DNA of 64,000 bases from assembly GCF_000190315.1 (NCBI RefSeq), contig NC_015151.1, positions 1,054,001 through 1,118,000 on the forward strand. Reading direction: 5' to 3'. Shown here in pieces: positions 12,875-36,957 of this stretch. Made by a program: the position numbers and the translations under genes. This stretch comes from Vulcanisaeta moutnovskia 768-28. Its GTDB lineage: Archaea > Thermoproteota > Thermoprotei > Thermoproteales > Thermocladiaceae. Numbering within the stretch: position 1 is the stretch's first letter; the number at the start of each line of letters is the position of its first letter. The notes beneath the pieces were generated by a model. The model was given only the letters and a program-made list of their open reading frames with translations, had not been told where the DNA came from and did no database searches.

Positions 12875-12877
12875 ACC

Positions 12878-14942: not shown

Positions 14943-14957
14943 AGTGTTTTATGCACT

Positions 14958-19273: not shown

Positions 19274-19705
19274 TCATGGGTTTGTCGTGTTCATGCCCAG
19301 TTCTGGTCTGTATATTATTGGTGTGTTCAGCCACATTAGGCCCATGTTGATTATGTCCTGGACCCTCCTAACAACAGCCCTGACCCAATCAAGCCTCTCA
19401 ACCAGTTTCCTGCCGACTAGGTAGGCTATGAACTTCGCCTTTCTCATCAGTACGAGACTTAGCGCCTCTATTACCGCTTCCCTGAGCATTCCCAGGACCT
19501 TCGGTGACTTGAACCTGAGGCCTTGCCTTAGGTATGGAATGGACGCCTCGAGGAGACCCCTTCGTAGTGGGTCAATTCTCCACCAAACGCCGAGTCTTAG
19601 GGCTAATTTCTTTGTTGATTGTATTAGTTGCAGGCTGACGACATTGATGGTGTTGTTCAGGAAGTCCCTTATGAGTCCCAGGGCCTCCTCGGGTGGTATA
19701 AACAT
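19274..19705 (-). CDS. Small helical protein of unknown function (WW-R family, copy A)
   Basis: A 143-residue protein I do not recognise. It is mostly helical and basic, with the block LGVWWRIDPLRRGLLEASIP about 40 residues in. The protein at 23586-23966 shares this layout, including WWRVNPLRRALLNATIMYLR, then a K/R-rich segment, ML-R-AVIEAL, R--FVAYLVG and a C-terminal GL-WLN-P, so the two are paralogues. No signal peptide or membrane helix is evident. The ATG at 19705 sits about 26 bases downstream of a TATA-like ATTTAAATAT on the minus strand, so the mRNA is probably leaderless. It lies at the left edge of the surface-protein island. Confidence 0.7.
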   Translation of the reverse strand: MFIPPEEALGLIRDFLNNTINVVSLQLIQSTKKLALRLGVWWRIDPLRRGLLEASIPYLRQGLRFKSPKVLGMLREAVIEALSLVLMRKAKFIAYLVGRKLVERLDWVRAVVRRVQDIINMGLMWLNTPIIYRPELGMNTTNP

Positions 19706-19730
19706 TACAATTTAGTGGGTTATGGCCATT

Positions 19731-19740
19731 ATTTAAATAT
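19731..19740 (-). promoter_or_regulatory. TATA box for the WW-R protein gene
   Basis: The strand-symmetric ATTTAAATAT at this spot is centred about 30 bases upstream of the ATG at 19705 on the minus strand. That is the usual spacing of an archaeal TATA element to a leaderless start. The sequence is visible; promoter activity is inferred. Confidence 0.5.
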
Positions 19741-20323
19741 TGCCCTGGGGACGTGTCGTTGGGTTTCTTGCCTCACTGCCTATTGCCTGCTTTGACTTAT
19801 TGTGCCTTCTTGTTTCTATGGCTGCTGGTATTGCCATTAGTCCTATGGCTAGGGCTACCCAGTATATTAGGTGTGGGGTTATTGTTATTGTCATTAGTAT
19901 GTTGGTGTCTCCGTAATTCATACCCATGACTCCACTGTCCATGAGCACCAGCGGGTATTTCGCTGGTACGTGGTACACGCCAAATACGTAGTTCGCTATG
20001 TAGTATATAATGAGTGGGTAGATGAGGTATGGTATTGATAGTGAGGTCAATGCGTAGGTCCTTACCGGCTTATCCTTCATTGTCACTAGGTATATGTTTC
20101 TTGCCAGGGTTATTATTAGGTATGCCCTGTACGCCTCGAGTACTGCGGTTATTAAGCCCGAGATCTCCAGGGTCGTTCCCAGGAGGGTTATTACGAATTG
20201 GAATGGTGATGTGCCAATTATGAGTAGCCCGCCGAAGTCGTATGTCCACCAGTACAGTGGTGTTGCCACCACGGCTAGCCCAAGGACCAGGTACACCAGT
20301 GTGATTGGGTACTTGATCCTCAT
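19733..20323 (-). CDS. Polytopic membrane protein of unknown function
   Basis: A 196-residue protein with about five hydrophobic segments: YPITLVYLVLGLAVVATPLY at the start, FQFVITLLGTTLEISGLITA, YLIYPLIIYYIANYVF, and a last one near IYWVALAIGLMAIPAA, followed by a basic tail. I do not recognise the family. The ATG overlaps the stop of the surface repeat protein (20320-20323), so the two are translated together. It may anchor, secrete or partner that protein. The C-terminal tail is cytoplasmic by the positive-inside rule. Confidence 0.65.
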   Translation of the reverse strand: MRIKYPITLVYLVLGLAVVATPLYWWTYDFGGLLIIGTSPFQFVITLLGTTLEISGLITAVLEAYRAYLIITLARNIYLVTMKDKPVRTYALTSLSIPYLIYPLIIYYIANYVFGVYHVPAKYPLVLMDSGVMGMNYGDTNILMTITITPHLIYWVALAIGLMAIPAAIETRRHNKSKQAIGSEARNPTTRPQGNI

Positions 20324-21951
20324 GGTCTCACCCTCAGCCTGACCATTGTTGAGCCTACCATGACCGTTACATTGACATACTCGTTAAGGGCGCTCGCATT
20401 GGTTACCCTGAGCCTGAGGATACCAGTGCTGTTTGGTGGTATCTCGACTGGTGCCATAAGGTGTACGTATTGGTTGGTTATGTTGATTATTTCCATGGGT
20501 ACACCGAGTGGGTTCTTGATGGGGATCTCTATGATCGTTGGTTCAAGCCCCGTACTGCCTATTGTGAACTCCTCTGTTAGGTTCACGCCCATGATGCCCA
20601 GGAGTATTGTCACGTTTTTCCCCACTGGGTTGGTTATGTTGGTCATGAGGAACCTAAGCACCGTCTCTCCTATGGGCGGTATTGTCGTGGTGTTCATTAG
20701 GTGTAGGATTGGGCTTGTTATGTTGTATATGGTTATTGCGTGGCTCGTTGGGTTTTCGACAGGTATACTCAGTATGGCGCCCCTTAAGTCGCTAAGACCT
20801 GCTGTTGTGCTTAGTGGTGTTACCATAGTCAGGTTGATGCCGTTGATGCCCAGTTTTATTAGTACGTCCTCATTACCCATGGCAATGCCCCTGTAGAGAC
20901 CGAGGTAGTTGCTCACGTTTATGGTTATGTAGGAGGAGCCAGGTGGAACCACCTGTGGTGGGCTTGCCAGTTCTATGTATTGCCCTCGTAATTCATAGAT
21001 AATCACCTCAGTGTTCAGTGGGTTTTCTACGTTGACCCTCAACACACCGCCTGTGCTGATTGGTGTGGCGTTAATTCCCCTGCTTAGTATGAATTCGCCG
21101 CTGATCACCGTACCGCCTAGGTTCATGGATGCGTTAACCACCTCCTCACCCTCCTGGTATAGGGCGTAGAAGCCTGTGTAGTTCCATACGTGGAACTCCG
21201 CACTTGCTGTACTGTTTGGTGGTACCTCCACAGGGCTGACTAGGGTTATGTACCTGCCCGTAATGTTGTATATGGTTACCATGAATGGATAATTATTCCT
21301 GACTACAATGCGTACGTATCCGCCGCTCAGGTTTGGTATTGATAATTGTACACTGGTTGTTTTACCAAGTATGCCCTCTGTGGTTATTCCCACCCCACAC
21401 GCTGTCAGGTTCATGGTTATTGCCTCCTCGCCAGCCGTGTATGATTGGTAGAGGGCTTGGGCGTTAGTTATTGTCAGTGCTATGGAGGCTGTGCCCTGTG
21501 GCGGGACTGTGTATTGCCTGTTCATGGTTATGTAATTCCCAGTTATGTTGTTTATGACTACTGTGCAGTTGAGGTGGTTCGTTATTAGTAGTGTCATGGC
21601 TCGTTCGTTGTATGGTTGCACGCTCATGTCCAGTGTTCCGTTTATGCTGGTTGGTAATTTGGGTACTTCAAAGCTGAGCCCTCCTGTGACATTCATTGGT
21701 GCGCTTGGTATGTGCATATGAAGTAATCCAGCGCCGTTATTAATGCTGCTCAGCACGCTTAAGAGTCCCTGGGTATTTAGTTCTATATTGGGCGTAATAA
21801 CGCTGCTGCTTATTTTGCTTAGTGAATCGTTGACTATACTGATTGGTTGTGTTATGTAATTATGGATATTAGTGGGAACATTATTAATTACTATGTATGC
21901 CACTACTATTGCTACAGCTACCAAAATGGCTATGAGTCTAATTATATCCAT
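20320..21951 (-). CDS. Membrane-anchored surface protein with five beta-sandwich-like repeats
   Basis: A 543-residue secreted protein. Residues 4-22 are a hydrophobic N-terminal anchor (RLIAILVAVAIVVAYIVI). The rest is rich in N-x-S/T sites and holds five copies of an 85-95-residue unit. Its core is a V-x-N-P/N-like strand, then I-x-x-I-x-G-x-Y-I, then V-P-P-x-S/T (cores near residues 120-155, 215-248, 305-340, 395-430 and 475-510). This resembles LEA/Ig-type repeats (for example VRNNYPFMVTIYNITGRYIT). It is a good candidate for an S-layer-associated or exposed glycoprotein. It is divergently transcribed from the flippase gene. Confidence 0.8.
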   Translation of the reverse strand: MDIIRLIAILVAVAIVVAYIVINNVPTNIHNYITQPISIVNDSLSKISSSVITPNIELNTQGLLSVLSSINNGAGLLHMHIPSAPMNVTGGLSFEVPKLPTSINGTLDMSVQPYNERAMTLLITNHLNCTVVINNITGNYITMNRQYTVPPQGTASIALTITNAQALYQSYTAGEEAITMNLTACGVGITTEGILGKTTSVQLSIPNLSGGYVRIVVRNNYPFMVTIYNITGRYITLVSPVEVPPNSTASAEFHVWNYTGFYALYQEGEEVVNASMNLGGTVISGEFILSRGINATPISTGGVLRVNVENPLNTEVIIYELRGQYIELASPPQVVPPGSSYITINVSNYLGLYRGIAMGNEDVLIKLGINGINLTMVTPLSTTAGLSDLRGAILSIPVENPTSHAITIYNITSPILHLMNTTTIPPIGETVLRFLMTNITNPVGKNVTILLGIMGVNLTEEFTIGSTGLEPTIIEIPIKNPLGVPMEIINITNQYVHLMAPVEIPPNSTGILRLRVTNASALNEYVNVTVMVGSTMVRLRVRP

Positions 21952-21973
21952 ATGTAATGATTTACCACTATTC

Positions 21974-21981
21974 TTTATAAA
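21974..21981 (-). promoter_or_regulatory. TATA box for the five-repeat surface protein
   Basis: TTTATAAA lies about 27 bases upstream of the minus-strand ATG at 21951, the spacing expected of a leaderless archaeal transcript. It sits in the 123-base divergent region shared with the flippase gene at 22075. Assignment to the minus strand rests on spacing only, because the element is palindromic. Confidence 0.5.
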
Positions 21982-22074
21982 TTATAGTATTAGTGGCATG
22001 GGTAAAACGTGATGGGTATTATCCTTGTTGTGAATAATGCTTTAATTATGCCTTGCTAATGATGACTTCGCATA

Positions 22075-23544
22075 ATGAGGGAATCACCAGTTGGTGGTGT
22101 GATATTTGGATACCTATACACTGCGGTTAATTACACCTTTGCATTGATCTACGTCATCGTATTGACCAGGTACATACCCCTGACCCAGTATGGTTATTAC
22201 AATACTTTAATGGCCATGATTGGCATGATTGGTTTGTTCTTCCCGACCCTCGGCGTTGATGCGGCTATAGCCAGGGAGGGCGCAATGATGCATTCCAGGG
22301 GTTTGGACATTAGTGATCACTACGCAGCCCTGCTCGCAATATCCCTAACAATATCGACACTCTACGCGGCAGCACTAATAATCGCCACGCCACTATACCT
22401 CGCCAGTAAAATACCCAGTGAGTATATGGGTCTTACCATTATTTATGCAGTTTATGTAATCACGGCAGGCATTAACGGCGCGTTATCAGCATACCTATGG
22501 ATGACTGGCAGATTAGTAACACAGGGAATTGGCAGTATGCTGGGTAGCATAACATTTAGGAGTATTGAGATAGCGTTGATGCTTGTGATGAGGAATGTTT
22601 ACGCAATACAGTTGGGTATGGTGACTGGTCAATTAGCCACATTGATTTACTACCTGTCCCTGGTTAGGCACATACCGAACCCAGTGAGGGGAATTTCATT
22701 GATAAGGAGGGGTTTGAGGGGTTACGTAAACCTTGGCATTCAGAATTGGTTGCTTGGTTACCTGGGTTCCGTGGGTGGTTACGCAATAACCTACATAATT
22801 TACTTATTCATAGGCACGAATTACGTAGCCCTCTACAGCCTAGTCACTTACATGCTTGGTGCGGTGACTGCCCTGGGTGGTGCCGTGACTAACGTCTTTG
22901 GGAGTAGGGTAGCCCATGCAATTGGCAGTAATGCAAGTGAGACGCATCACTTGATCCGTGATTACGCGGTAGCAGCCATCGCAGTGAGCGGCATATTAGC
23001 CCTCGGCGCTGCATTACTCGCGCCGTTACTGCCATTGATTGGTATTGTCCATGGTAATTATATTGACGCAATACCCTATGGTATTGCCCTGTTCGGTACT
23101 GCGGTGCTTAGTTCCGTGGTTTCCATATACACGACGTATTACTGGTTACTGGGTAGGGGTTGGAGTGCCCTCGTAATTTCCGGGATTGGCATAGTCACGA
23201 GTGTCTTATCATCATTATCCCTACTGGCCTTTGATGGTGGTATTGGTCTCTACGCCGTTATATTGTCCTCCTACCTCGGGTCTATGGTTTCCATAATCAT
23301 CTACCTAGCCATTGATAGGGGACCAAGCGCTGCTCACTTGGCTGTGAATACCGCAATCTACCTATTGCTCTCGGTCGCGGTGGCTCTATCCTACATACTA
23401 ATCACAAGTTCCTGGCCACTCTACCAATTGATTATTTTTCTCCTCGCGCTATTAATAACATACATTGTGAGACCAATACCTAGGTCTGTGCTTGATCAAT
23501 TACCTGGTTTCATTAGGCCTCTCCTGGCTCCATTTGTGTCATAA
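22075..23544 (+). CDS. Polysaccharide flippase (Wzx/MATE-like, MOP superfamily)
   Basis: A 489-residue membrane protein with about 14 hydrophobic helices. It starts GYLYTAVNYTFALIYVIVLT RYIPLTQYGYY. The early R-Y-I-P-x-x-x-Y-G-x-Y-N pattern is typical of the polysaccharide transporter branch of the MOP superfamily. It would flip a lipid-linked glycan from the inner to the outer membrane face. In this neighbourhood it is the natural link between the cytoplasmic glycosyltransferases and the surface-protein genes. The ATG follows a short AT-rich region shared with the divergent repeat protein. Confidence 0.85.
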   Translation: MRESPVGGVIFGYLYTAVNYTFALIYVIVLTRYIPLTQYGYYNTLMAMIGMIGLFFPTLGVDAAIAREGAMMHSRGLDISDHYAALLAISLTISTLYAAALIIATPLYLASKIPSEYMGLTIIYAVYVITAGINGALSAYLWMTGRLVTQGIGSMLGSITFRSIEIALMLVMRNVYAIQLGMVTGQLATLIYYLSLVRHIPNPVRGISLIRRGLRGYVNLGIQNWLLGYLGSVGGYAITYIIYLFIGTNYVALYSLVTYMLGAVTALGGAVTNVFGSRVAHAIGSNASETHHLIRDYAVAAIAVSGILALGAALLAPLLPLIGIVHGNYIDAIPYGIALFGTAVLSSVVSIYTTYYWLLGRGWSALVISGIGIVTSVLSSLSLLAFDGGIGLYAVILSSYLGSMVSIIIYLAIDRGPSAAHLAVNTAIYLLLSVAVALSYILITSSWPLYQLIIFLLALLITYIVRPIPRSVLDQLPGFIRPLLAPFVS

Positions 23545-23557
23545 TTTATGCGAAAAG

Positions 23558-23566
23558 CTTTATTTT
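23558..23566 (+). promoter_or_regulatory. TATA box for the second WW-R gene and downstream operon
   Basis: CTTTATTTT is centred about 27 bases upstream of the ATG at 23589 and sits in the only gap (41 bases) between the flippase stop and this gene. It may start the long plus-strand transcript through the DUF58 gene. Activity is inferred from position. Confidence 0.4.
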
Positions 23567-23585
23567 CACCCCCTGAAGTTCTTGT

Positions 23586-23966
23586 TTGATGCTTGATAAT
23601 TACGTAATTGACCTAGTTAGGGATTTCCTGGTGAGTCACGTGAATGGTGTCGACCTTCATTTCCTACTCCACGTGAGGTCACTCGCCATTAGGGTGAATT
23701 CCTGGTGGAGGGTGAACCCACTCAGGAGAGCATTGCTTAATGCCACAATTATGTACTTGAGGATGGGCTTCATTGTGAAGTCAAGAGCCTTAATTAATAT
23801 GCTTAGGGACGCCGTGATAGAGGCACTACTTGGGGCAGTGATGAGGAGGCTATCCTTCGTTGCCTACGTGGTTGGCATTAGGATTGCTGGGCATGGTAAG
23901 GACCCAGTGATTGCTGGGCTCCAGTGGCTTAATAGGCCAGGTCATTACAGGTGGTTGGCTAAGTGA
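23586..23966 (+). CDS. Small helical protein of unknown function (WW-R family, copy B)
   Basis: A paralogue of the protein at 19274-19705. It is 126 residues from a TTG at 23586, or one residue shorter from the ATG at 23589, which fits the TATA spacing better. Shared positions include VNSWWRVNPLRRALLNATIM, NMLRDAVIEALLGAVMRR, FVAYVVGIRIAG and GLQWLNRPGHY. Function unknown. Because it opens the plus-strand run and overlaps the next gene by four bases (23963-23966), it is likely coupled to the DUF1616-containing proteins. Its basic, helical nature leaves RNA/DNA binding or membrane association open. Confidence 0.75.
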   Translation: MMLDNYVIDLVRDFLVSHVNGVDLHFLLHVRSLAIRVNSWWRVNPLRRALLNATIMYLRMGFIVKSRALINMLRDAVIEALLGAVMRRLSFVAYVVGIRIAGHGKDPVIAGLQWLNRPGHYRWLAK

Positions 23967-24862
23967 TCCGTTGGTCATTAATATTGATCCTGTTGCTTGC
24001 GGTATTGGGAATAACGGCGTATGCACAGCAATCAAGTGCCTTAATGGCTTACCACTACATTGTTGAGTTGAGTAGGTTGGGTGTTAACACCACGGTTCTA
24101 ATTAATGAATTGAATCAAGCCATCTACCTTGAGAGCGTGGGGCAGGTGAGTAATGCCTCGTTAATCATAAATAGCATAGTCACCAATGCGCAATCAATGC
24201 TTCCTGGGACTGGTCTTCATCACATGGTTTATATGGTAGTTGAGGCCCTGGTAATCGTGCTTGTAATAGCCCTAATCGTGGTGCTTTACGTGTGGAGGCG
24301 TGAATTCATAGGCTCTATCTGGCTTAGGGTTAGGGGTGGTAATAGGGTTAGGGGCGGTGGCCCTGGTAGGAGTAGGACGTTTTTGTTTAATGAGGAGGTA
24401 GCCGCAGTGGCCTTGTCCCTTGTCATAATACTCATTGTATTCCTAACAGCCCAGTCAGTGGTGAGTAGTTATACCCAGTCCTTCTCTGCAATAGCCCTCC
24501 TCGGCCCCACTGGAAAGCTTGGTGATTACCCGAGCACAGTAATCATTGGACAACCAATTAACCTCTACATATATGTCTATAACCACATGGGTGTCCCTAC
24601 CTGGTTCATTGTTAAGGTCTTCATAACAAGCAACACGAGCGCCGAACCACCACTCAACCAGACACCGGTCATGGTCTTCCAGAGGGTTTTGGCGAATAAT
24701 GGGACTTGGATCGAACCACTAACGTTTAGCCTAAACTCCACTGGCTCGTATAGGTTGATTGGGGAGCTTTGGATGTACGACCCAGGTAATTTAACGCTTA
24801 CGTACACGGGTAATTACGTGCAGTTGTGGATCAATGTCACGCAGGTGATGCCCAGTGGATAA
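23963..24862 (+). CDS. Secreted/membrane protein carrying the C-terminal part of DUF1616
   Basis: This 299-residue product starts at GTG (23963), overlapping the previous stop. It has a signal peptide (SLILILLLAVLGITAYA), a short helical external segment and a hydrophobic helix near residues 89-109. After a basic loop (VRGGNRVRGGGPGRSR) comes a second helix (VALSLVIILIVFLTAQSVV), then an external beta-rich domain. That last domain begins LLGPTGKLGDYPSTVIIGQP and reads like the extracellular end of DUF1616. In most archaea that end is fused behind the membrane core in one protein; here the core sits on the next gene. Confidence 0.75.
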   Translation: MIRWSLILILLLAVLGITAYAQQSSALMAYHYIVELSRLGVNTTVLINELNQAIYLESVGQVSNASLIINSIVTNAQSMLPGTGLHHMVYMVVEALVIVLVIALIVVLYVWRREFIGSIWLRVRGGNRVRGGGPGRSRTFLFNEEVAAVALSLVIILIVFLTAQSVVSSYTQSFSAIALLGPTGKLGDYPSTVIIGQPINLYIYVYNHMGVPTWFIVKVFITSNTSAEPPLNQTPVMVFQRVLANNGTWIEPLTFSLNSTGSYRLIGELWMYDPGNLTLTYTGNYVQLWINVTQVMPSG

Positions 24863-25442
24863 TAGTGATGTAAAGAAGGCCATCAGGAAGGCCCTAGGCG
24901 CTAACCAGTGCTCCAGTGTCAGTGAATTGGTTAGTGTTGTTTCAAGGGACTTGGGCTTATCGCAGGGCGTTGTTGCCTATGAGGTAATGATGATGTGGAA
25001 GAATGGGGAACTGGAACTGGAGGGTGTCCCGCGCAACGCTGTTGCTTATGTCTTTAGTATCGAGGGTATTTGGTACTGGGTATCCCTGGTCCTTGTTATT
25101 TCCTCCGTGGTTGCGGTATTGCTAATAGCATCGGGTCCCCTCATCTACCTTAGGTATGGCCTTGGGGCATTGATGATACTCTTCATGCCAGGCTACGCAC
25201 TTGTTGAGGCTCTGTACCCAAGGGGTGATGAGTTGAGTCCGTTGGAGAGACTTGCCCTGTCCATAGGACTTAGCCTAGCCGTTGTTCCCCTAATTGGCTT
25301 ACTACTTAATTACACACCATGGGGTATTAGGTTTGTGCCTATTGTGATTTCTACGAATATCATAACAATTGCCCTACTCACGGTTGCCCTGGTTAGGAAG
25401 GCCAGAGCATTCGAGGCAGGTGAGGATAGGTGCCAGGGATAA
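24855..25442 (+). CDS. DUF1616 membrane core with N-terminal helix-turn-helix-like segment
   Basis: A 195-residue protein. Residues 1-60 form a small helical domain of winged-helix look (SSVSELVSVVSRDLGLSQGV, then a short basic/acidic hairpin). The rest is the four-helix DUF1616 core: LIYLRYGLGALMILFMPGYA, LVEALYP, LSPLERLALSIGLSLAVVPL and LLLNYTPWGIRF. It overlaps the previous gene by 8 bases and the next by 13. DUF1616 has no known biochemical role but is common near archaeal surface-protein and glycan genes. The domain order across these two genes is the reverse of the usual fusion. Confidence 0.8.
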   Translation: MDNSDVKKAIRKALGANQCSSVSELVSVVSRDLGLSQGVVAYEVMMMWKNGELELEGVPRNAVAYVFSIEGIWYWVSLVLVISSVVAVLLIASGPLIYLRYGLGALMILFMPGYALVEALYPRGDELSPLERLALSIGLSLAVVPLIGLLLNYTPWGIRFVPIVISTNIITIALLTVALVRKARAFEAGEDRCQG

Positions 25443-26155
25443 ACAGTGACCTAGGCATATCACTGTTGATACTTGGTGCTGGGCTAACAGTGATTGGTTA
25501 CTTGATCCTTGACTCAACACCAGTCCTTGTCCTCGGCATATCGGTGATCATAATGGGCCTATTGGCCGCGTGGGGTGAGGGAGCGCTGGAGAGGACTCAA
25601 TTGGAGCTTGCCAGGACTGGTTGGGTGAATGTTAGTGTATTGCTTGAGAGCCTTGGGGTGGCTAATAGGGCCATTTATATGCCCAGTAATACCACGGAGT
25701 TCGGGGTCACCATGGCACTAGTACCACTGGTTAAGCCCATACCACCCAGCATTAGGTTGCCCAGGGGATTCGCCGTTAAGTACGGTGCAGAAGGCGAGAC
25801 CGGCCTACTGCTCTACACACCAGGCTCCGCGGCAGTTACTAAGTGCATGGGTGCTGGTGCAATAGGTGGTGATGCCTCCACAAGCCTAACCAATTGCCTT
25901 GTTAATCACCTAACCGTGGCTAGAGGTATAGTGACTACCATCAGTGATAATGGCATTACTGTGGTTGTCAGGGATTCGAGGGTTGGTGAGCTTTACGGTA
26001 ATGAATTAACAAGGTCCATTATTGGTTCACCAACAGCTTCATTAGTCGCTGCAGTGATTGCTGAATCCCTTAACTCACCGGTCATGATCGAGTCCGAGGA
26101 AGTCAGGGGCAGGGATTTAGTGGTTAGGCTTAGGGTGCTTGGTCGTGGTGCTTAA
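25430..26155 (+). CDS. Membrane protein with external domain, unknown function
   Basis: 241 residues from a GTG at 25430. Two hydrophobic helices at the start (GISLLILGAGLTVIGYLILD and VLVLGISVIIMGLLAAWGE) are followed by a globular mixed alpha/beta domain. I recognise the whole only as a DUF1616-neighbour type; central features include SVLLESLGVANRAIYMPSN and GLLLYTPGSA. Two cysteines near residues 139 and 155 could form a bond if the domain is outside. It overlaps the following small membrane gene by 17 bases on the longest frames. Confidence 0.6.
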   Translation: MPGINSDLGISLLILGAGLTVIGYLILDSTPVLVLGISVIIMGLLAAWGEGALERTQLELARTGWVNVSVLLESLGVANRAIYMPSNTTEFGVTMALVPLVKPIPPSIRLPRGFAVKYGAEGETGLLLYTPGSAAVTKCMGAGAIGGDASTSLTNCLVNHLTVARGIVTTISDNGITVVVRDSRVGELYGNELTRSIIGSPTASLVAAVIAESLNSPVMIESEEVRGRDLVVRLRVLGRGA

Positions 26156-26405
26156 GCAACTACTAATAACGCAGTTAATGCTTTACGCGGTGATCATCGC
26201 ATTCCTGGCATACTTGGGTGTTGGTGACATTGCCATATACATTTCACTGATTATCCTGGTCTACCTAGTGACCATAGTGACTGCCCACCCACTACCGCCT
26301 GGTATGCGTAGGGTATCCACAGTAATCACTGTGGTATTGGTTGCTATATTCCTCTACTTCGCAATAATTAGGATACTTGAAATACTGGGTGTGCCAGTAC
26401 TATGA
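26139..26405 (+). CDS. Small membrane protein (about 85 aa, three helices)
   Basis: The longest frame starts at a TTG at 26139. The GTG codons at 26145 or 26148 are more likely starts and cut the overlap with the preceding gene. The protein has three hydrophobic stretches: MLYAVIIAFLAYLGVG, IAIYISLIILVYLVTIVTAH and VVLVAIFLYFAIIRILEIL. No family recognised. It ends overlapping the next start by four bases (26402-26405), so it is part of the same coupled run. Confidence 0.6.
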   Translation: MVVVLKQLLITQLMLYAVIIAFLAYLGVGDIAIYISLIILVYLVTIVTAHPLPPGMRRVSTVITVVLVAIFLYFAIIRILEILGVPVL

Positions 26406-28261
26406 GGGTTATTTACCTCGCATTGATTGGGCTCCTCTTCATAATTGCCATTACTTACCTAGGCCACATGATTAGGTGGCAATCATTATCGATAATGAAT
26501 CCACTTAATGAGAAGTTGTCTGTTGATGTGCAGGGCGTCACAAACCTATTCATAGAGGCCCTTGAATTGAATGCAATAAGCAACTACACGGACGCGCTGA
26601 GTCTCCTTAAGGCCCTAGGTGCTTCCGGGGCAGTAAGGGCTATGCCTGCATTAAGCCAGTTACATTCCTACGAGTCACAACTCACTAATTACCTATCTGA
26701 GTTAGGTAGTATTTACTCCGAGTCCCTTAGCCTAATATCAATGGGCAACTACAGTGGTGCTAGGAGCCTCGCCCTTGAGGGTTTACTACTCGATAGTGAG
26801 GCGAATAATGAGTTAAACACCATAGCGAACATAATCAGTAGTGTTGCTCCTAACAGTACTGGGCAGGTGATTGGCACAATCCAATCAATTAGGCAGTACC
26901 TAGTCAATCTCAATAATACTTTTCTAGGCATAATAGCCAGTAATTATACAGGGACTGAGTTAACAATAGCAGTCTCACCAAACCCGGTGGTCATTGGTGA
27001 GGATGTTATTACCCAGGGAGTGCTGACTATGGTAAATGGAACGCCAATACCGAACGCCACCGTGACCATATACATAGGCAATAACCAGGTTGGTTATGCA
27101 ATAACAAATGCAGCTGGTCATTACTCACTGAGCTTTGTAATACCGCAGATTTACATGAATATAACAAACGTGACCGCGCTATACAACCCAACACCAGGAA
27201 GTAACTTCCTACCCTCTAGGGCGGTGGCTCCCATAATCATTAACTTCAACTCAACGCAACTCATTGTTAATTATACTAAGCAGGTGACGTGGGGTAGCGC
27301 AATAAACATTAGTGGTTATGTGAATGGACCCCCACTTAGGCAGGTAATTATTAGTATTAATGGGTTTAATGTAAGTACGTACGCCATAAACAATAGGTTT
27401 TACGCATCGGTAGGCACAACCAACATGACACCCGGTAATTACTCACTCATGGTTTACGCACCACCCATTAATTCATACTCACCCGCCTACTTCAACGGCA
27501 CCATTGCGGTATCCCCAATAATAATTAATGCAACAGTAACGGCAAGTAATGTGGCGATTGCTGGCTTGTCAGTACCAGTGACCATACATGTAACTCCCTG
27601 GATCAACAACCTAACACTTACGATATATCTCGGTAATGAGGCGATGAACATCAGTGCGCCAGGCCCTAACTTCACAGTCTCATTATCAATACCAGCATCC
27701 CTAAGCATGGGTAGGCGTTACATAGTTGTTTCAGTGGTTACAAATCCACCAGTAATAGGTACTCCCTATGCCTACGGTATCTTCGTAATAAACCCAATCG
27801 AGGTCGTAATACCCATAGCCCTCGCAATACTGCTCTTCCTACTTGTGCGTTCAGGTATGATAACAATAACCAGCAGACAGGAGGTTATTAACCCACGGGA
27901 GTCAGAATCCCTTAATCCCATCCCACTCAGTATTAGGGCTAGGCCTGAGGTTAAGGCGTTGGAGAGGAAAATAATGAGTAATGTACCGGTTGGTAAGATA
28001 AACATTGATAGTGTTAAGGAGATTGTCAGTGCAATGGCTAGTGCAATTTACGTGGTAAGCAAAAAAACTGGGATTAAATTGAGAAGTACGGATACGCTCA
28101 GGGAGTACCTAAGCGCCATGACTGGTAAGTTGGGTGATGATGATTACACGGTGCTCGCATCCCTCGTTAAACTGACGGAGTACGCCTTGTATTCACCATA
28201 CGTACCCACAGACAATGATGTAAATACCGCCTGGGATTTAGCGAGGCGATTCACACAATGA
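26402..28261 (+). CDS. Secreted/membrane protein with Ig-like beta domains and a DUF4129-like cytoplasmic tail
   Basis: A 619-residue protein. A signal anchor comes first (ALIGLLFIIAITYLGHM), then an external helical region to about residue 175. Two or three Ig/carboxypeptidase-regulatory-like beta domains follow, with many N-x-S/T sites (for example ATVTIYIGNNQVGYAITN). A single C-terminal helix (PIALAILLFLLVRSGM) leads into a cytoplasmic tail of about 140 residues with the compact helical pattern of DUF4129, here TGIKLRSTDTLREYLSAM. That tail is a standard partner of MoxR and DUF58 proteins in bacteria and archaea. It starts a transmembrane route from outside to the ATPase encoded two genes on. 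Confidence 0.7.
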   Translation: MRVIYLALIGLLFIIAITYLGHMIRWQSLSIMNPLNEKLSVDVQGVTNLFIEALELNAISNYTDALSLLKALGASGAVRAMPALSQLHSYESQLTNYLSELGSIYSESLSLISMGNYSGARSLALEGLLLDSEANNELNTIANIISSVAPNSTGQVIGTIQSIRQYLVNLNNTFLGIIASNYTGTELTIAVSPNPVVIGEDVITQGVLTMVNGTPIPNATVTIYIGNNQVGYAITNAAGHYSLSFVIPQIYMNITNVTALYNPTPGSNFLPSRAVAPIIINFNSTQLIVNYTKQVTWGSAINISGYVNGPPLRQVIISINGFNVSTYAINNRFYASVGTTNMTPGNYSLMVYAPPINSYSPAYFNGTIAVSPIIINATVTASNVAIAGLSVPVTIHVTPWINNLTLTIYLGNEAMNISAPGPNFTVSLSIPASLSMGRRYIVVSVVTNPPVIGTPYAYGIFVINPIEVVIPIALAILLFLLVRSGMITITSRQEVINPRESESLNPIPLSIRARPEVKALERKIMSNVPVGKINIDSVKEIVSAMASAIYVVSKKTGIKLRSTDTLREYLSAMTGKLGDDDYTVLASLVKLTEYALYSPYVPTDNDVNTAWDLARRFTQ

Positions 28262-29085
28262 AGTGGATTCCAATATCAGTGGTAATTCTCACCTTTATTT
28301 TCATAGCCATAGCCCTAGGACCCTCACTAACACCCTTCGATGCATACAACTCCTATTGGGATGGTTACTCAACAGCAGCCTCAATATGCCTAAAACCCGT
28401 CTATGCCCTACCGAGCAACCTCAGTGGTATCACCTCCATCTTCATAACCCCAGAAACAAACCTAAGTAGGTCCTTAATATCATCATTACTTAACTATGTG
28501 GTTAGTGGCGGTAGGTTAGTTGTAATTGACGGTAATGTGGAGGCTAGCAATCAATTACTAAGTGAGTTGGGTGTTGGGAGTAGGTTCACGAACCTCATGA
28601 TTAGGGACCCAATACTCAATGTGATTAATGAGGAGTTCCCACTGGCGTTTGTGGTGAGTAACCCATTAATATCAATGAATCAGGGTGTGCTGGCGCTGGA
28701 TAATGCCACGGTGATCGATATAGGCGACCCCAATGCTGTGGTTATTGCAGAAACAAGTCGCTTTAGTATTGCCGGTAACCTAACGGGTTCATTCCCAGTC
28801 ATAGTTGCCATATCCATTGGTAGGGGTTATGTAATCCTCATTTCAAGCCCGGGGATGCTCATGAACTCATTAATTAATGAGGCAAATAATGAGGCCTTCC
28901 TCAGGGAATTATGCAGTAATGGTTCTGCGGTATACTTCGAGGGTGCATTGATTGAGAATCCACAGGGTATTGCCAAGGCCTGGTTACTTACGGCATATGC
29001 CTACGCATCCACATACCCAGTTAATTACCTACTGATTCTAGCGCCGGTAATACTTATGATAGTAGTATTATTAATAAAAAGGTAG
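28258..29085 (+). CDS. DUF4350-like membrane protein
   Basis: 275 residues. It has an N-terminal helix (VVILTFIFIAIALGP), an external Rossmann-like domain and a C-terminal helix (YLLILAPVILMIVVLLIKR). The stretch VSGGRLVVIDGNVEASNQLL and the following VVAISIGRGYVILISSPG match the DUF4350 fold, which resembles a glutamine-amidotransferase-like fold with no catalytic residues. DUF4350 is a known companion of MoxR and DUF58. The start overlaps the previous stop by four bases (28258-28261). Confidence 0.75.
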   Translation: MKWIPISVVILTFIFIAIALGPSLTPFDAYNSYWDGYSTAASICLKPVYALPSNLSGITSIFITPETNLSRSLISSLLNYVVSGGRLVVIDGNVEASNQLLSELGVGSRFTNLMIRDPILNVINEEFPLAFVVSNPLISMNQGVLALDNATVIDIGDPNAVVIAETSRFSIAGNLTGSFPVIVAISIGRGYVILISSPGMLMNSLINEANNEAFLRELCSNGSAVYFEGALIENPQGIAKAWLLTAYAYASTYPVNYLLILAPVILMIVVLLIKR

Positions 29086-29086
29086 T

Positions 29087-30067
29087 TTGAATGTAGCCAG
29101 TATGGGCTTTAGAGGAATTGATACCGTTAAGCGCATTAGGGATAATATATCAAGGGTATTCATTGGTAATGAACAAGCCGTCAGGATACTCCTAGCCACA
29201 CTACTCAGTGAGGGTCATACCCTACTGCTCGGTCCCGTGGGTTCCGGAAAAACCACACTGGCGAAGACCATCGCATTGACAATTGGGGGCGTGTTTAAGA
29301 GGGTTCAGGTAACAAACGAGACCCTGCCATCCGACATACTTGGTTTCATGATTTATACGCCAAATACAGAACCAAGACTTGTTAAAGGCCCAATATTCGC
29401 AAATGTGGTACTGCTTGATGAAATAAATAGGGCGCCCCCGAGAACCCTATCGGCGCTCATTGAGGCAATGCAGGAGAGACAGATAACAATTGATGGCGTG
29501 CCACTTGAGCTACCCAGGCCCCATATAATAGTGGCAACAATGAATGTCATAGAGGTTGAACTTGGTTACTCCCAGCAATTGCCGTTGGTTATACTTGATA
29601 GGTTCGTGTCAAGTATATACATTAGTTACGTCAGTGATGAGGAGGAGATGGCGCTGGTTAGGGAGATAGATAAGATAGAACGTGAGATGATGACGCTGGG
29701 CAACATTACCAATGCCAATGATATGATGAGGATAATTAATGAAGTAAGGAATGTGTATGTCGATGACTCAGTGCTTAATTACATGATGGGCATAATCAGG
29801 GAGATAAGGAGGGACCCAAGAGTGCAGGTGACGCTAAGTACGAGGGCTCCAATAAGCCTATTTAAGATCTCAAGGGCTCTTGCATACCTTGATGGTAGGG
29901 ATTATGTATTGCCTGATGATGTTAAGGTCGCTGCCTACTCAACACTAATGCACAGGATACTCCTAAGGCCTGAGTATAGGGGTTCCGTAACACCCATGAA
30001 CATAATTGACGACGCAATAGGTAAGGTGCCAGTCCCACATTATATAGAGACCCAGGTAAAGGTATGA
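29087..30067 (+). CDS. MoxR-family AAA+ ATPase
   Basis: About 326 residues from a TTG at 29087; the ATG at 29102 is an alternative. Walker A is GPVGSGKT (49-56), Walker B is VVLLDEINRAPP (D111, E112), sensor I is ATMN, and LDRF is the usual MoxR arginine region. The C-terminal lid contains STRAPISLFKISRALAYLDG, matching the MoxR lid. MoxR ATPases act with DUF58 and von Willebrand-type partners as chaperones that assemble or insert metal into partner proteins. Here the genes before and after encode DUF4350 and DUF58, so it should power maturation of a surface complex. Confidence 0.92.
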   Translation: MNVASMGFRGIDTVKRIRDNISRVFIGNEQAVRILLATLLSEGHTLLLGPVGSGKTTLAKTIALTIGGVFKRVQVTNETLPSDILGFMIYTPNTEPRLVKGPIFANVVLLDEINRAPPRTLSALIEAMQERQITIDGVPLELPRPHIIVATMNVIEVELGYSQQLPLVILDRFVSSIYISYVSDEEEMALVREIDKIEREMMTLGNITNANDMMRIINEVRNVYVDDSVLNYMMGIIREIRRDPRVQVTLSTRAPISLFKISRALAYLDGRDYVLPDDVKVAAYSTLMHRILLRPEYRGSVTPMNIIDDAIGKVPVPHYIETQVKV

Positions 30068-31353
30068 ATAAGAGAGTAATTACTGATTGGGTTCGCATAT
30101 TCGTAACTACTATACCCGTAGTATCAGCCATAGCCTCCATAGGTAATATACCACTTTTCTCATTATTCGTTGTAATGACCATAATAACATGGCTTTATTG
30201 GGATAGATACCCAATACCCATATCCCTTGCATTAATCGCATTGAACTCAATAGTGACAACGCCCATTAATATAGCGCTTACATCAATATCCACACTTGCC
30301 CTCGACAAAGCACTTAGGACAGGTAATGACAAGCCCTGGTGGCTCTATGCATCATCACTTACAGCATCAATATCAATAGCACTACTCCTCCTAAAGATCT
30401 ACGTGGCGGTATCACTGGCCGTACCAACACTATACCTATTAATTAAGTCCCTGCTGAGTTTCATTAGATTCCACACGGTCAATATAGAGTTAAGGCCGGG
30501 CAAGGAATTAAGGACTAACGCCGGTACTGAACTCGCATACCCACTTACAATAGTTACAAGGCCTAGGTTAAGGGCCACAGTGAGAATTAAGGCCCCGAGG
30601 AACTTAACTATAAGCCCAAGTGAACTGCGTATTGATGGGGAGGGTACCGTCAATATAATTGCCAGGTATAGACTCGGTGGTGTGAAGAGGCCTAGGCTCA
30701 TGCTTACGCTTATTGATGAGGCAGGGATTATTAGGGTTGCTAGGGTTATTAGACATCCGCGCATTACTGTGATTCCTAGGGCGAGGGCGGCTGTTGAGGC
30801 CGTAAGGGGTTTTCTGGCTCAGTCAATGTCATCATTGGGTATGGAGAATGTTCAGGAGGTTAGGGAGTACATACCTGGTGACCCAATTAGGAGAATTCAT
30901 TGGAAGAAGAGCGCCAAATTAAATAGATTAACCATTAAATTAATGCAGAGTCAGGGGTTAATGGGGCCAATTGTCCTACTGTCCTATGCATCGAATTCCA
31001 CCTTTGCCGATAAAATTGGGGAGGTGTTTGTTTACCTAACGGCTGAGTTATTAACAAGGATTCCAAGGGTGGAAGTTATTTCTATGAGTAGGGATGGTGA
31101 AGTCACTAATTACCTGCTTGATAAGGATAATTACTTCAACATGATTGATGAGATACTAGGCAGAATTGAGAATTTGGGCATTAGGCTCATTGGTGGTGGT
31201 GACTATGCAGACATACTGAGCATTATTAAGTATTTAATACCATTGAGGATTAAGGACATCGATAAGGAAGAGACAATAGTGATAGGGCAGGCATTATTCA
31301 TGGAACCAATGTGCAAGGCACTCGGTGAACGTGCCATATGCATCTCGGTTTAG
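30064..31353 (+). CDS. DUF58-domain membrane protein
   Basis: 429 residues. Two to three hydrophobic helices at the N-terminus are followed by an external or membrane-adjacent beta-rich part (VNIELRPGKELRTNAG). Then comes the DUF58 block VREYIPGDPIRRIHWKKSAK with LNRLTIKLMQ, the trademark of the family. The rest is a vWA-like fold. It is coupled to the MoxR gene (start overlaps by four bases at 30064-30067). DUF58 proteins are the standard membrane/vWA partners of MoxR. Confidence 0.92.
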   Translation: MNKRVITDWVRIFVTTIPVVSAIASIGNIPLFSLFVVMTIITWLYWDRYPIPISLALIALNSIVTTPINIALTSISTLALDKALRTGNDKPWWLYASSLTASISIALLLLKIYVAVSLAVPTLYLLIKSLLSFIRFHTVNIELRPGKELRTNAGTELAYPLTIVTRPRLRATVRIKAPRNLTISPSELRIDGEGTVNIIARYRLGGVKRPRLMLTLIDEAGIIRVARVIRHPRITVIPRARAAVEAVRGFLAQSMSSLGMENVQEVREYIPGDPIRRIHWKKSAKLNRLTIKLMQSQGLMGPIVLLSYASNSTFADKIGEVFVYLTAELLTRIPRVEVISMSRDGEVTNYLLDKDNYFNMIDEILGRIENLGIRLIGGGDYADILSIIKYLIPLRIKDIDKEETIVIGQALFMEPMCKALGERAICISV

Positions 31354-31422
31354 ACGATAGTAATATTTTAATAATACATATTTATATAAGTAAGTAATAC
31401 ACATGTTACTAGTGAATGGGCT

Positions 31423-32553
31423 ATGATGACCCTATTAGTATTAATCGAGGAGCTAGGCATTGCATTCATAACCATGCATTTCCTTACACCAAGCATTTAC
31501 TACGTAGTAGCGCTGGGCTGGTTAAGGTCAAATAAGAGATCAGGCGATAAAACCGAGTTAAGTGTTGATCCACCATTAGTATCCGTCATAATACCAACGT
31601 ATAATGAGGCCAAGGCAATAATCCAGAAACTCAATAATGTTTACTCCCAGGACTACCCTAGGGATAGGTTTGAGGTCATTATTGTCGATTCAGGGAGTAC
31701 CGACAGAACCGTTGAGTTAATTCATGAGTGGATTAAGGGTCATGACGGTATTAATGTTAGGGTTATTGAGGAGGGTGCTCGAATGGGTAAGATGCATGCG
31801 TTAAACACGGCATTGAAGTATGCGAAGGGTGATATAATCGTGATTACTGATGCTGACTCAGCATGGACCCAAGACTCTCTTAGGAATGCCGTTACTTGGT
31901 TAATGACTGATGGTGTTGGGGCAGTCTCCTGTAATAAGATACCAAGGACTGATAAGGATGTCGAGGCCGAGTATAGGAGTTACTATGGATTACTTAGGAT
32001 TGCCGAGAGTAGGAAGTTCTCCTCGGCAATATTCCACGGGGAACTAGCCGCATACAGGAGAGATTTACTTGAGAAGATTGGTGGTTTCCCAATGGATGTG
32101 GGTGCTGATGATAGTCACACGGCTGGTTTAATATCAATGTTGGGTTATAGGGCCATTATCCCCGAGAATGTTAGGTGTATTGAGTATGTGCCGAGCAAGG
32201 GCTATTGGATGTGGAGGATTAGGAGGGCTCAGCACTTGATTCAGCATTTCTTGAGGATTCTAAAGTACATGGTTACTAATGGTAAGGAACTACCCAGGGA
32301 CTATAGGCAAATAATGCTTTATGAGTCATACCTACACCTCATTAATCCCTGGCTTTTCGTTATTGGATTCGTCCTTGTAATAATCTCCGCAATGCATGGG
32401 GCCATAATACCAATCGTGTTAATTCTGATTGGCATGGTATTATTAGCGATTAGGTTCTTCAGAACCTGGATAACCACCCAGGTAATACTCGTGGTAGCCT
32501 CCATTAGGAATCTATGGAATAAGGAGCTGGTATGGAGGAAGATAGAGAAGTAA
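31423..32553 (+). CDS. Membrane GT2 glycosyltransferase
   Basis: A 376-residue GT-A enzyme. It has a first helix at the N-terminus, VSVIIPTYNEAKAIIQKL, EVIIVDSGSTDRTVELI, the metal motif TDADS, and RIRRAQHLIQHFL in the position of the processive Q-x-x-R-W motif. Two C-terminal helices follow (WLFVIGFVLVIISAMHG and IVLILIGMVLLAIRFF). It probably makes or starts a lipid-linked or processive glycan. An upstream TTTATATA (31381-31388) is a likely TATA box for this unit. It overlaps the next gene by 22 bases. Confidence 0.88.
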   Translation: MMTLLVLIEELGIAFITMHFLTPSIYYVVALGWLRSNKRSGDKTELSVDPPLVSVIIPTYNEAKAIIQKLNNVYSQDYPRDRFEVIIVDSGSTDRTVELIHEWIKGHDGINVRVIEEGARMGKMHALNTALKYAKGDIIVITDADSAWTQDSLRNAVTWLMTDGVGAVSCNKIPRTDKDVEAEYRSYYGLLRIAESRKFSSAIFHGELAAYRRDLLEKIGGFPMDVGADDSHTAGLISMLGYRAIIPENVRCIEYVPSKGYWMWRIRRAQHLIQHFLRILKYMVTNGKELPRDYRQIMLYESYLHLINPWLFVIGFVLVIISAMHGAIIPIVLILIGMVLLAIRFFRTWITTQVILVVASIRNLWNKELVWRKIEK

Positions 32554-34142
32554 TTGGAATAGCGTCGGTAATTGCACCCCTTACAATACTCACATCATTA
32601 GTGCTACTTAACTATATTATCAATGGCTTACCATACATACCTGATTCCTGGGTCCACATAGCTCACTCAGAAACCCTATTGAGGACTGGCTACCTCTTTG
32701 GCCCATCACCAAACCCATCAATGGTCAGTTACAATTACCAATGGCCCACTGTAAACCTATTACTCACACTATCACAATCAGTGCTTGATCTAAAGCCCTT
32801 GCAGTCATTTTATATCGTGAACATACTGGCCTCCCTATCCATACTACCCTTCATATCATTTACAAGGCGGTTAACAGGAAGTAATACGGTAACGCTAATC
32901 ACGGGCCTATTATTCGCGGTAACCAGTGTTAAGCTCCTCGTTGATGTCTCGGTAATGAAGGAAACAGCGGCTCAATACCCATTCTATGCCTATATACTGG
33001 CTACGTACATGGCATTAATGGATAATAAACACTTTAGGCAGAACCTTGTGGTTGTGGTATTGTCATTCATAGCAATACTCTTCGCCCACCACTTCACATT
33101 GTTAATGGCATTGGCCTACTCCTTCATAATGGCAATAACCATATTAGTGAGTAATTACTTAAATGGTAATAATACTAAACACGGACTTTACCTATTAGTC
33201 ACTGTCATAATCCTAGGCCTACTCACCTATTACTGGTACACGGATTACCTAAGGGCATTCAGCGTCACTGGCTTTGTAACACCGGGGCTAATCTCAACAC
33301 CAATCCTAATAGCACTTCTTCTCATTGATTACGTAGCCATGCGTAGGGGATCGCGCATTGTGATTTATACTGTCCTCACCCTCATAGCCATTACCCTAAT
33401 AGCCATGTTCTCACTGGGTAAGTTCCTGCCTTACGTACTCGAGGGCTTTAATAAGGCGGTAGTACTATCATCAATACCTTATATACTGCCAATACTCCTC
33501 GCCACGCTCTACCTCACGCTCTATGGGTTTAGGAAACCCGTAATCACTATGCTAACAATAATCTCACTCGCCATACTACTCTACGTGTTACTCATGGGTA
33601 ATAACCCAATGGAACTACTCTTCCTCTCTAAATCCCTGGACTTCATAATGCCCTTTCTACTAATACCAACGGCGTTGATAATAACCGTAATGCTAAGGCG
33701 TAGGCCTTCCATAAGTGCCATTGCCTATTTGCTTACTGCAATCCTGTTAATTTCATTACCCTTATTCACCTTATTAACGCTCTTCACGTATTCATTACCA
33801 ACATCATCAACACTCACGGTTTATAGAATAATAGATTACGATGAATTCAAAGCCATTAATAACCTAATACCGAGTAACACGACCCTATATGCATCAATTA
33901 GTTATAACCCAATGATAAGATTCATGAGTGGTATTAACTCCTCCGATCCAACAATATACCTACTCCATGGTGAATCACCACCAGGTCTCCTCATACTCAC
34001 TGAAAGAAACGTAAGAGTAGGTTTCCTGTACGGTTCGGGTTATAGCATGGTTAGCATACCCAGTAATTACCTACTTAATACCCTGGCTAATGATGACTTG
34101 CTTTACTCAAGCAGGACTCTGTGGGCCTATACACAGCCCTAA
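32532..34142 (+). CDS. Polytopic membrane protein, GT-C-type glycosyltransferase candidate
   Basis: 536 residues with about 11 hydrophobic helices. The first external loop has PYIPDSWVHIAHSE (D38), a position where GT-C enzymes keep an acidic residue. It contains further loop motifs such as YNYQWPTVNLLLTL. The C-terminus ends with a soluble domain of about 110 residues. The layout matches that of 11144-12874, though sequence similarity is weak by eye. It closes the plus-strand island and meets the ABC ATPase gene tail to tail with a 4-base overlap (34139-34142). Confidence 0.65.
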   Translation: MEEDREVIGIASVIAPLTILTSLVLLNYIINGLPYIPDSWVHIAHSETLLRTGYLFGPSPNPSMVSYNYQWPTVNLLLTLSQSVLDLKPLQSFYIVNILASLSILPFISFTRRLTGSNTVTLITGLLFAVTSVKLLVDVSVMKETAAQYPFYAYILATYMALMDNKHFRQNLVVVVLSFIAILFAHHFTLLMALAYSFIMAITILVSNYLNGNNTKHGLYLLVTVIILGLLTYYWYTDYLRAFSVTGFVTPGLISTPILIALLLIDYVAMRRGSRIVIYTVLTLIAITLIAMFSLGKFLPYVLEGFNKAVVLSSIPYILPILLATLYLTLYGFRKPVITMLTIISLAILLYVLLMGNNPMELLFLSKSLDFIMPFLLIPTALIITVMLRRRPSISAIAYLLTAILLISLPLFTLLTLFTYSLPTSSTLTVYRIIDYDEFKAINNLIPSNTTLYASISYNPMIRFMSGINSSDPTIYLLHGESPPGLLILTERNVRVGFLYGSGYSMVSIPSNYLLNTLANDDLLYSSRTLWAYTQP

Positions 34143-36368: not shown

Positions 36369-36957
36369 ACCTGCTCACCCATGTGAGGCCTTCGATAATG
36401 TACACAACACTTATCACGCCAATTAACGGTAGTAATGCTGGTAAGGCGCTCGTTACGCTAATACCATAATTAATAATTGGTATAATATTTAGTGTTGTTA
36501 ATACCTTCATAATCACTAGGACCAGGACTGCGGATATTGAGATCCCCAATACGAATGAGTATATTGAAATAAGTATCATTATTAATGTTACGTAAGTAGT
36601 AATACTGACCCTGGACCTAAAAATATTAGCAAGGGCTCTCAAGTCACTTCCCAGGCTCCTTACCAGGCCATTAACCATGAAAATAGAAGTCACTATGAAG
36701 ACCACAATTAAGGCTGCAACCACTAGGTAGGTTATGGAGTTTATGAAGTGAATTACATTATTGATTATAGACCCTGAGTATGGGGTTGCCACCGTAATTA
36801 ATGCCTCGGCATAGGTATTGAGTATGTTCATTAGTAATTCATAGGTTGACAACACCATTATTGGTATTGCCGCATTAATAATTAACAACCTAAATGAGCT
36901 AATATCCCTAATAAAGAACCTCACCGATGCGTCAATGGCATAAACCCAACGATGCAC
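36352..36957 (-). CDS. Second FtsX-like membrane subunit
   Basis: 201 residues with four hydrophobic helices (RLLIINAAIPIMVLSTYELL, ITYLVVAALIVVFIVTSIFM, TYVTLIMILISIYSFVLGIS and ALPALLPLIGVISVVYII). The order and spacing match the C-terminal half of an FtsX permease, but there is no large external domain. It is first in the minus-strand unit of three genes and probably forms a heterodimer with the 525-residue permease. The region upstream holds a symmetric CTTAAAAAT/ATTTTTAAG that may serve both directions. Confidence 0.7.
   Translation of the reverse strand: MHRWVYAIDASVRFFIRDISSFRLLIINAAIPIMVLSTYELLMNILNTYAEALITVATPYSGSIINNVIHFINSITYLVVAALIVVFIVTSIFMVNGLVRSLGSDLRALANIFRSRVSITTYVTLIMILISIYSFVLGISISAVLVLVIMKVLTTLNIIPIINYGISVTSALPALLPLIGVISVVYIIEGLTWVSRYDALP

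What the first reader, a model, noticed from the sequence alone, without database searches (positions are those of the whole stretch)
19274..34142. Surface-maturation island built around MoxR, DUF58, DUF4350 and DUF1616
The genes form two arms that diverge at 21951-22075. The minus arm has a five-repeat surface protein and a membrane partner. The plus arm runs flippase, WW-R protein, split DUF1616, Ig-like protein with DUF4129-like tail, DUF4350, MoxR, DUF58, GT2 and GT-C. Nearly all plus-arm junctions overlap by a few bases. MoxR-DUF58-DUF4129 sets are known, but joined to a flippase, glycosyltransferases and a repeat protein they suggest a glycoprotein or S-layer assembly system that I cannot match to a described one.
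Basis: partly seen in the sequence, partly recalled or inferred. Interest (0 to 1): 0.78.

Follow-up and report, generated by a model that had tools for sequence, protein, structure and literature searches.

The report
Archaeal MoxR-DUF58 envelope module, glycan island
This is one of two copies, in a heat-loving archaeon, of a widespread but experimentally untested ATP-driven membrane machine, and it sits at the edge of a large gene island that makes cell-surface sugars, which suggests that it helps to assemble or export the sugar-coated cell envelope.

Summary
The conserved core is 23963-31353: DUF1616 C-half, DUF1616 N-half, H, I, Ig/DUF4129-like J, DUF4350, MoxR, DUF58. [quoted passage not shown]

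The core is gained and lost as a unit: 13 of 33 Thermoproteales genomes have it. The order H-I-J-K-MoxR-DUF58 recurs in Desulfurococcales, Bathyarchaeota, Nitrososphaeria and Baldrarchaeum. The remaining genes are looser cargo: the repeat protein occurs in two species and a thermopsin-like gene replaces it in a third. So 'twelve co-conserved genes' fails, while the link to surface glycans holds: in all eight single-contig genomes tested the module lies near a glycosyltransferase cluster. In this genome two modules flank a 56-kb island with 25 of 44 glycosyltransferase hits.

New details: the DUF58 partners lack the metal-binding MIDAS motif across the phylum. Core protein H has a confident model without a significant PDB match. 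A ~130-residue 'WWR' family tracks these loci. The glycan or glycoprotein assembly function is inferred, not shown.

The parts
19274..19705 (-). WWR-family protein, 143 aa, no Pfam family; paralogue of 23586-23966; cargo, often next to ATPase_2 genes
   Evidence: alignment A3: invariant R37, W41, R43, R49, G62, W125, N127, P129 across 18 sequences; 17 of 33 genomes of the order
19733..20323 (-). membrane partner, 196 aa, 3 hydrophobic segments; lineage-specific
   Evidence: homologues seen only in G012 (319 bits) and, detached, G011 (145 bits)
20320..21951 (-). secreted/anchored five-repeat protein, 543 aa, 23 N-x-S/T sites; lineage-specific
   Evidence: five alignable units; full length only in G000 and G012
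21974..21981 (.). TATA-like box TTTATAAA in the 123-bp divergent gap, 23 bp before the minus-arm ATG; palindromic
   Evidence: 2 copies in the window against 2.6 expected, so notable by position only
22075..23544 (+). Polysaccharide flippase (PF01943); cargo
   Evidence: 36.6 bits, cut 28.2; orthologues before DUF1616 in G011, G012, G016 and G002, next to DUF58 in G003 and G010
23586..23966 (+). second WWR-family protein, 126 aa; cargo
   Evidence: 43% identical to 19274-19705
23963..24862 (+). core F: DUF1616 C-terminal half (membrane segments + extracellular domain)
   Evidence: PF07760 positions 149-307, 46.8 bits
24855..25442 (+). core G: DUF1616 N-terminal half (4 hydrophobic segments, soluble N-terminal extension)
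   Evidence: PF07760 positions 3-120, 105.6 bits; alignment A4
25430..26155 (+). core H: 2-TM protein with a soluble alpha+beta domain; no Pfam match, no significant PDB match
   Evidence: AlphaFold2 pLDDT 92.3, pTM 0.90 for residues 50-241; Foldseek best E 0.017; near DUF4350 in 27 of 32 genomes with both
26139..26405 (+). core I: 88-aa protein, about 3 hydrophobic segments
26402..28261 (+). core J: signal anchor, extracellular Ig-like region, TM, DUF4129-like tail
   Evidence: PF13559 19.3 bits at 555-615, CarboxypepD_reg 26.3, Big_3_5 23.1 (all sub-threshold); 20 N-x-S/T sites
28258..29085 (+). core K: DUF4350 protein, hydrophobic ends
   Evidence: PF14258 41.3 bits; hydrophobic 1-28 and 250-275
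29087..30067 (+). core L: MoxR AAA+ ATPase with GPVGSGKT, VLLDEI, ATMN
   Evidence: PF07726 129.9 bits; motifs; own clade in tree, 100/100
30064..31353 (+). core M: DUF58 protein, membrane N-terminus, vWA-like domain without MIDAS
   Evidence: PF01882 23.8 bits; REYIPGDPIRRIHWKKSA kept, DxSxS replaced by SYASNS
31423..32553 (+). GT2 glycosyltransferase; cargo
   Evidence: PF00535 121.4 bits
32532..34142 (+). 12-TM GT-C-like protein with invariant P-x3-D-x-W, KET and HH; cargo
   Evidence: alignment A7; no Pfam match
34139..36957 (-). convergent ABC/MacB-FtsX-like transporter genes, syntenic in the genus; relation to the module unknown
   Evidence: PF00005 110 bits, PF12704 32.5 bits; kept beside the module in G011, G012, G016
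654..17525 (-). glycosyltransferase/epimerase/deacetylase run: right part of the glycan island
   Evidence: Pfam GT1/GT2/GT4, Polysacc_deac_1, Epimerase

Best explanation
Genes 23963-31353 are one of two copies in this genome of the archaeal DUF4350/MoxR/DUF58 envelope module (the arCOG01314-associated predicted secretion system). Proposed mechanism: a cytosolic MoxR hexamer uses ATP to work on the membrane-anchored DUF58 protein; DUF58 passes the force to an envelope complex made of Ig/DUF4129-like J, DUF4350 protein K, the DUF1616 pair F+G and small membrane proteins H and I; the complex assembles, exports or anchors surface glycan or glycoprotein made by the flippase and glycosyltransferases beside it. 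Shown here: gene content, order, co-inheritance, family membership, and the genomic link to glycosyltransferases. Inferred: the physical complex, the cytosolic place of the DUF58 domain, and the substrate.
For: Families. Published system. Order kept in the order, the phylum and named genomes including Bathyarchaeota, Nitrososphaeria and Baldrarchaeum. H and DUF4350 lie within about 4 kb in 27 of 32 genomes that have both. Genomes without H lack both the module MoxR clade and DUF4350 relatives of K. Glycosyltransferase enrichment and WWR linkage. In Haloferax volcanii a DUF1616 protein is N-glycosylated and lies in hvo_2160-2176, a region with several N-glycoproteins and cell-shape factors.
Against: No expression, localisation or interaction data. 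Glycosyltransferases cluster in all these genomes, so single-genome enrichment is modest (random-site p about 0.02-0.05) and the eight genomes are related. Outside the order, module loci were not tested for glycosyltransferase enrichment. G029 has the DUF1616 pair among glycosyltransferases but no module MoxR, so DUF1616 may have a role of its own. I did not verify that the H. volcanii region holds MoxR, DUF58 or DUF4350.
Confidence: 0.5

Rival explanations
1. General protein secretion or adhesin-export machine, as Makarova et al. proposed from the GldG-like DUF4350. The glycan genes are neighbours only because surface genes of all kinds gather there.
For: The authors' model and the HHpred link of DUF4350 to GldG. 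The module occurs without this flippase in G019, G023 and G030. Large secreted proteins lie beside it: thermopsin-like in G011, SBP_bac_5 in G002 and G003.
Against: Glycosyltransferases are near the module in all eight tested genomes. No secretion-pore candidate is in the module.
Confidence: 0.25
2. Quality-control or maturation chaperone of the envelope: MoxR with DUF58 remodels existing surface or membrane complexes, as NorQ-NorD and RavA-ViaA do for respiratory enzymes, rather than building new surface.
For: Known bacterial MoxR/VWA pairs act as maturation or remodelling chaperones. The MoxR here has intact Walker A, Walker B and sensor I motifs.
Against: The DUF58 partner lacks the MIDAS that NorD needs for its target. 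Dedicated membrane subunits come with it.
Confidence: 0.15
3. Cell-shape or morphogenesis control system that senses or scaffolds the glycoprotein coat.
For: H. volcanii hvo_2160-2176, which contains a DUF1616 gene and heavily glycosylated HVO_2160, is implicated in rod/disk shape.
Against: The shape phenotypes come from RdfA, Sph3 and DdfA, which are not in this module. It is not shown that the H. volcanii region holds the MoxR core.
Confidence: 0.1

Closest known systems
arCOG01314-associated predicted secretion system (Makarova, Galperin, Koonin 2015, PMC5898192)
   Same: DUF4350, MoxR, DUF58, Ig-like S-layer-like protein, DUF1616 and small membrane proteins in one neighbourhood (against 4, 5, 51)
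   Different: They describe the vWA protein as likely secreted; here it has a membrane N-terminus of 4-5 segments with R/K-rich sequence after it and no MIDAS, so a cytosolic domain is more likely. The flippase/GT2/GT-C/WWR neighbours are not in the passages and Table 2 that I read.
MoxR/VWA chaperone pairs: NorQ-NorD, RavA-ViaA
   Same: MoxR-class AAA+ next to a vWA-fold partner
   Different: MIDAS DxSxS, needed by NorD for its target though not for binding NorQ, is absent; the partner is membrane-anchored; many envelope subunits come with it
Bacterial MoxR-DUF58-DUF4129(-DUF4350) sets (actinobacterial and Bat-type operons; from memory)
   Same: DUF4129-like, DUF4350, MoxR, DUF58 in the same order
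   Different: No transglutaminase/DUF3488 gene; archaeal DUF1616, H and I instead. Not compared by search here
Archaeal N-glycosylation (Agl) clusters
   Same: Flippase, GT2/GT4, epimerase, deacetylase and a GT-C-like protein in the island
   Different: No STT3/AglB hit among the scanned window genes; the MoxR module is not part of described Agl pathways (own knowledge)

Membership tests
arCOG01314-associated predicted secretion system | DUF4350 protein with N-terminal signal/anchor and C-terminal TM | tested here: met
   PF14258 41.3 bits over cut 30.4; hydrophobic 1-28 and 250-275
arCOG01314-associated predicted secretion system | Adjacent MoxR-class AAA+ ATPase | tested here: met
   AAA_3 129.9 bits; DUF4350-MoxR order kept across the phylum
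arCOG01314-associated predicted secretion system | DUF58 partner with vWA-type domain | tested here: met
   PF01882 23.8 bits, just over cut 23.4; REYxPGDxxRRIHWKKSA signature
arCOG01314-associated predicted secretion system | DUF1616 protein(s) | tested here: met
   both halves, as two genes in swapped order; fused in L187, L191, L205, L210
arCOG01314-associated predicted secretion system | Ig-like S-layer-type protein and 2-3 TM membrane proteins | tested here: met
   J (sub-threshold Ig hits), H and I; the arCOG numbers themselves could not be assigned
arCOG01314-associated predicted secretion system | Secretion function | not testable with these tools
   no experimental paper on the system was found
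MIDAS-dependent MoxR/VWA chaperone (NorQD/RavA-ViaA type) | MIDAS motif DxSxS in the vWA domain | tested here: not met
   SYASNS in the window; DxSxS absent in every DUF58 partner where the site could be located, a lone Asp kept in some outside Thermoproteales
MIDAS-dependent MoxR/VWA chaperone (NorQD/RavA-ViaA type) | Cytosolic vWA domain reachable by MoxR | tested here: inconclusive
   hydropathy only: 4-5 N-terminal segments, R/K-rich after the last
Archaeal N-glycosylation (Agl) cluster | Oligosaccharyltransferase AglB/STT3 in the cluster | tested here: not met
   no STT3 hit among the 30 window proteins scanned; not searched genome-wide

The most novel reading that the evidence does not exclude
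A dedicated ATP-driven machine for building the archaeal glycan or S-layer coat: MoxR and a metal-independent (MIDAS-less) DUF58 partner drive an envelope complex, with H as an unclassified domain, encoded as a two-copy frame around the glycan island. It would be a missing envelope-assembly engine of TACK and some Asgard archaea.
Probability: 0.25. Interest if true: 0.75.

Novelty: new member of a known kind. Interest (0 to 1): 0.42.

Why it matters
How archaea without a cell wall build and anchor their glycoprotein coat is poorly known, and this system has stood as an untested prediction since 2015. The locus gives a testable handle: the module is tied to the glycan island, its composition is now sharper (H, split DUF1616, MIDAS-less DUF58), and the apparent twelve-gene system separates into a conserved eight-gene machine and lineage-specific cargo.

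Tried and rejected
Twelve-gene co-conservation: rejected. WWR as a core subunit: rejected, because six genomes have WWR without the module MoxR; kept as linked cargo. Fold of H: recurring low-score Foldseek hits to H-NOX, TRAPPC3 and BcsD (TM about 0.3-0.44, E 0.017 or worse) appeared with two models, but none is significant, and Pfam and PDB sequence searches found nothing useful; not assigned. Whether the two modules in this genome are a recent duplication: the trees leave copy B on a long, weakly placed branch. A Walker-motif pattern on distant MoxR proteins was too strict to use. NCBIfam named none of the module genes except weak AAA hits.
Full report
SETTING. The window is 1,054,001-1,118,000 of a single 2,298,983-base contig. 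The size matches Vulcanisaeta moutnovskia 768-28 (from memory). Named records with matching contig lengths identify relatives, e.g. Caldivirga sp. MU80 (G003) and Pyrobaculum sp. WP30 (G023).

ANATOMY. The plus arm runs flippase, WWR, F (DUF1616 C-half), G (DUF1616 N-half), H, I, J (Ig + DUF4129-like tail), K (DUF4350), MoxR, DUF58, GT2, GT-C-like; 8 of 11 junctions overlap. The minus arm holds the five-repeat protein (543 aa, 23 N-x-S/T), a membrane protein and a second WWR protein 43% identical to the first. Further left the window is a run of glycosyltransferases, an epimerase and a polysaccharide deacetylase. Convergent ABC/MacB-like genes follow on the right.

THE CORE. Orthologues of F-G-H-I-J-K-MoxR-DUF58 in the same order are present in the sister Vulcanisaeta genomes and, with some losses, in Caldivirga, Thermoproteus and Pyrobaculum. 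H was found in 13 of 33 genomes of the order. In 11 of these 13 a MoxR of the module clade (259 bits or more) lies beside H; G027 has a damaged one (197 bits, in-frame stops) and the G004 contig shows none. The best MoxR match in genomes without H is 241 bits, and none of them has a DUF4350 relative of K. The module MoxR proteins form their own clade with full support. Across 299 Thermoproteota genomes, 32 have hits to both H and DUF4350, and in 27 of them the two lie within about 4 kb in the same order. Fetched loci show H-I-J-K-MoxR-DUF58 in Desulfurococcales, Bathyarchaeota, Nitrososphaeria, Brockarchaeota and Candidatus Baldrarchaeum. DUF1616 is fused in several of these (L187, L191, L205, L210) and split with the C-half first in others, so the swap is old and not peculiar to this genome.

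WHAT IS KNOWN. Makarova, Galperin and Koonin 2015 (PMC5898192) described DUF4350 (arCOG01314) with MoxR, vWA/DUF58, Ig-like, DUF1616 and small membrane proteins as a predicted secretion or membrane-remodelling complex. A full-text search for arCOG01314 found only that paper. The present core meets all its testable features.

DIFFERENCES FOUND HERE. (1) In the DUF58 proteins the vWA metal site DxSxS is missing: SYASNS in the window, Y-A-[ST] in nearly all Thermoproteales copies, and at most a lone Asp elsewhere. In NorD the MIDAS is needed for the target but not for MoxR binding. (2) The DUF58 proteins carry N-terminal membrane segments followed by R/K-rich sequence, which by the positive-inside rule suggests a cytosolic domain, against the published 'likely secreted'; this is hydropathy only. 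(3) The soluble domain of H was modelled with a 30-sequence alignment at pLDDT 92.3, pTM 0.90. Foldseek against the PDB gave no match at E below 0.001; weak hits recur to H-NOX, BcsD and TRAPPC3, which is a lead only.

THE CARGO. The window-type flippase lies before DUF1616 in G000, G011, G012, G016 and G002. In G002 an H fragment with three in-frame stops follows the flippase-DUF1616 genes, so that copy is decayed. Flippases of the same family lie next to DUF58 in G010 and G003 and about 3.4 kb from the module in G028. They are not detected in G019, G023 and G030. WWR genes lie within 26 kb of a module in 13 of 14 cases in eight single-contig genomes, and divergent relatives lie near DUF1616 loci elsewhere in the phylum. 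The repeat protein is confined to G000 and G012; in G011 a thermopsin-family gene stands there instead.

GLYCAN ISLAND. Within 40 kb of the module there are 6-14 PF00535/PF00534 hits per genome against 0.8-1.5 expected; each genome alone gives p about 0.02-0.05 because glycosyltransferases are clustered, and the genomes are related. In the window's genome a second module (DUF1616N-H-I-J-K-MoxR-DUF58, minus strand, about 1,007-1,014 kb, L045) faces away from the first, and 25 of the genome's 44 hits lie in the 56 kb between them.

MECHANISM AND STATUS. Shown: content, order, co-inheritance, published family, genomic tie to glycan genes. Inferred: MoxR acts on DUF58, DUF58 on an envelope complex of J, K, F+G, H and I, and the complex assembles or exports surface glycan or glycoprotein. 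Support from biology elsewhere is indirect: in H. volcanii a DUF1616 protein is an AglB-dependent N-glycoprotein in hvo_2160-2176, a region with several N-glycoproteins that is implicated in cell shape. Whether that region holds the MoxR core was not checked.

VERDICT.

Noticed in passing
L045 (genome 1,000,001-1,020,000), 7411-14417: Second complete-looking MoxR-DUF58-DUF4350 module at the far side of the glycan island, with a GT2 and a WWR gene diverging from it.
   Followed up: partly
window 18075-19082 and L049, L055, L057, L122, L134: WWR genes repeatedly sit beside one to five ATPase_2 (PF01637) genes, in a tandem array in G011; the meaning of the pair is unknown.
   Followed up: no
L155 4444-7513 (G002 1,540,444-1,543,513) and G002 1,543,507-1,543,782: A decayed second module in a Caldivirga-like genome: broken flippase, intact-looking DUF1616 pair, H remnant with three stops, again on the other side of a glycosyltransferase run.
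   Followed up: partly
L050 16560-18866: A 768-aa thermopsin-family (PF05317) gene diverges from the flippase where the window has the five-repeat protein.
   Followed up: partly
L126 8245-9728: DUF1616 pair among GT4 genes in G029, a genome without the module MoxR clade: DUF1616 can live with glycan genes alone.
   Followed up: no
window 15736-16422: GT4 gene of 228 aa that looks like a shortened duplicate of the neighbouring 368-aa GT4 at 16419-17525.
   Followed up: no
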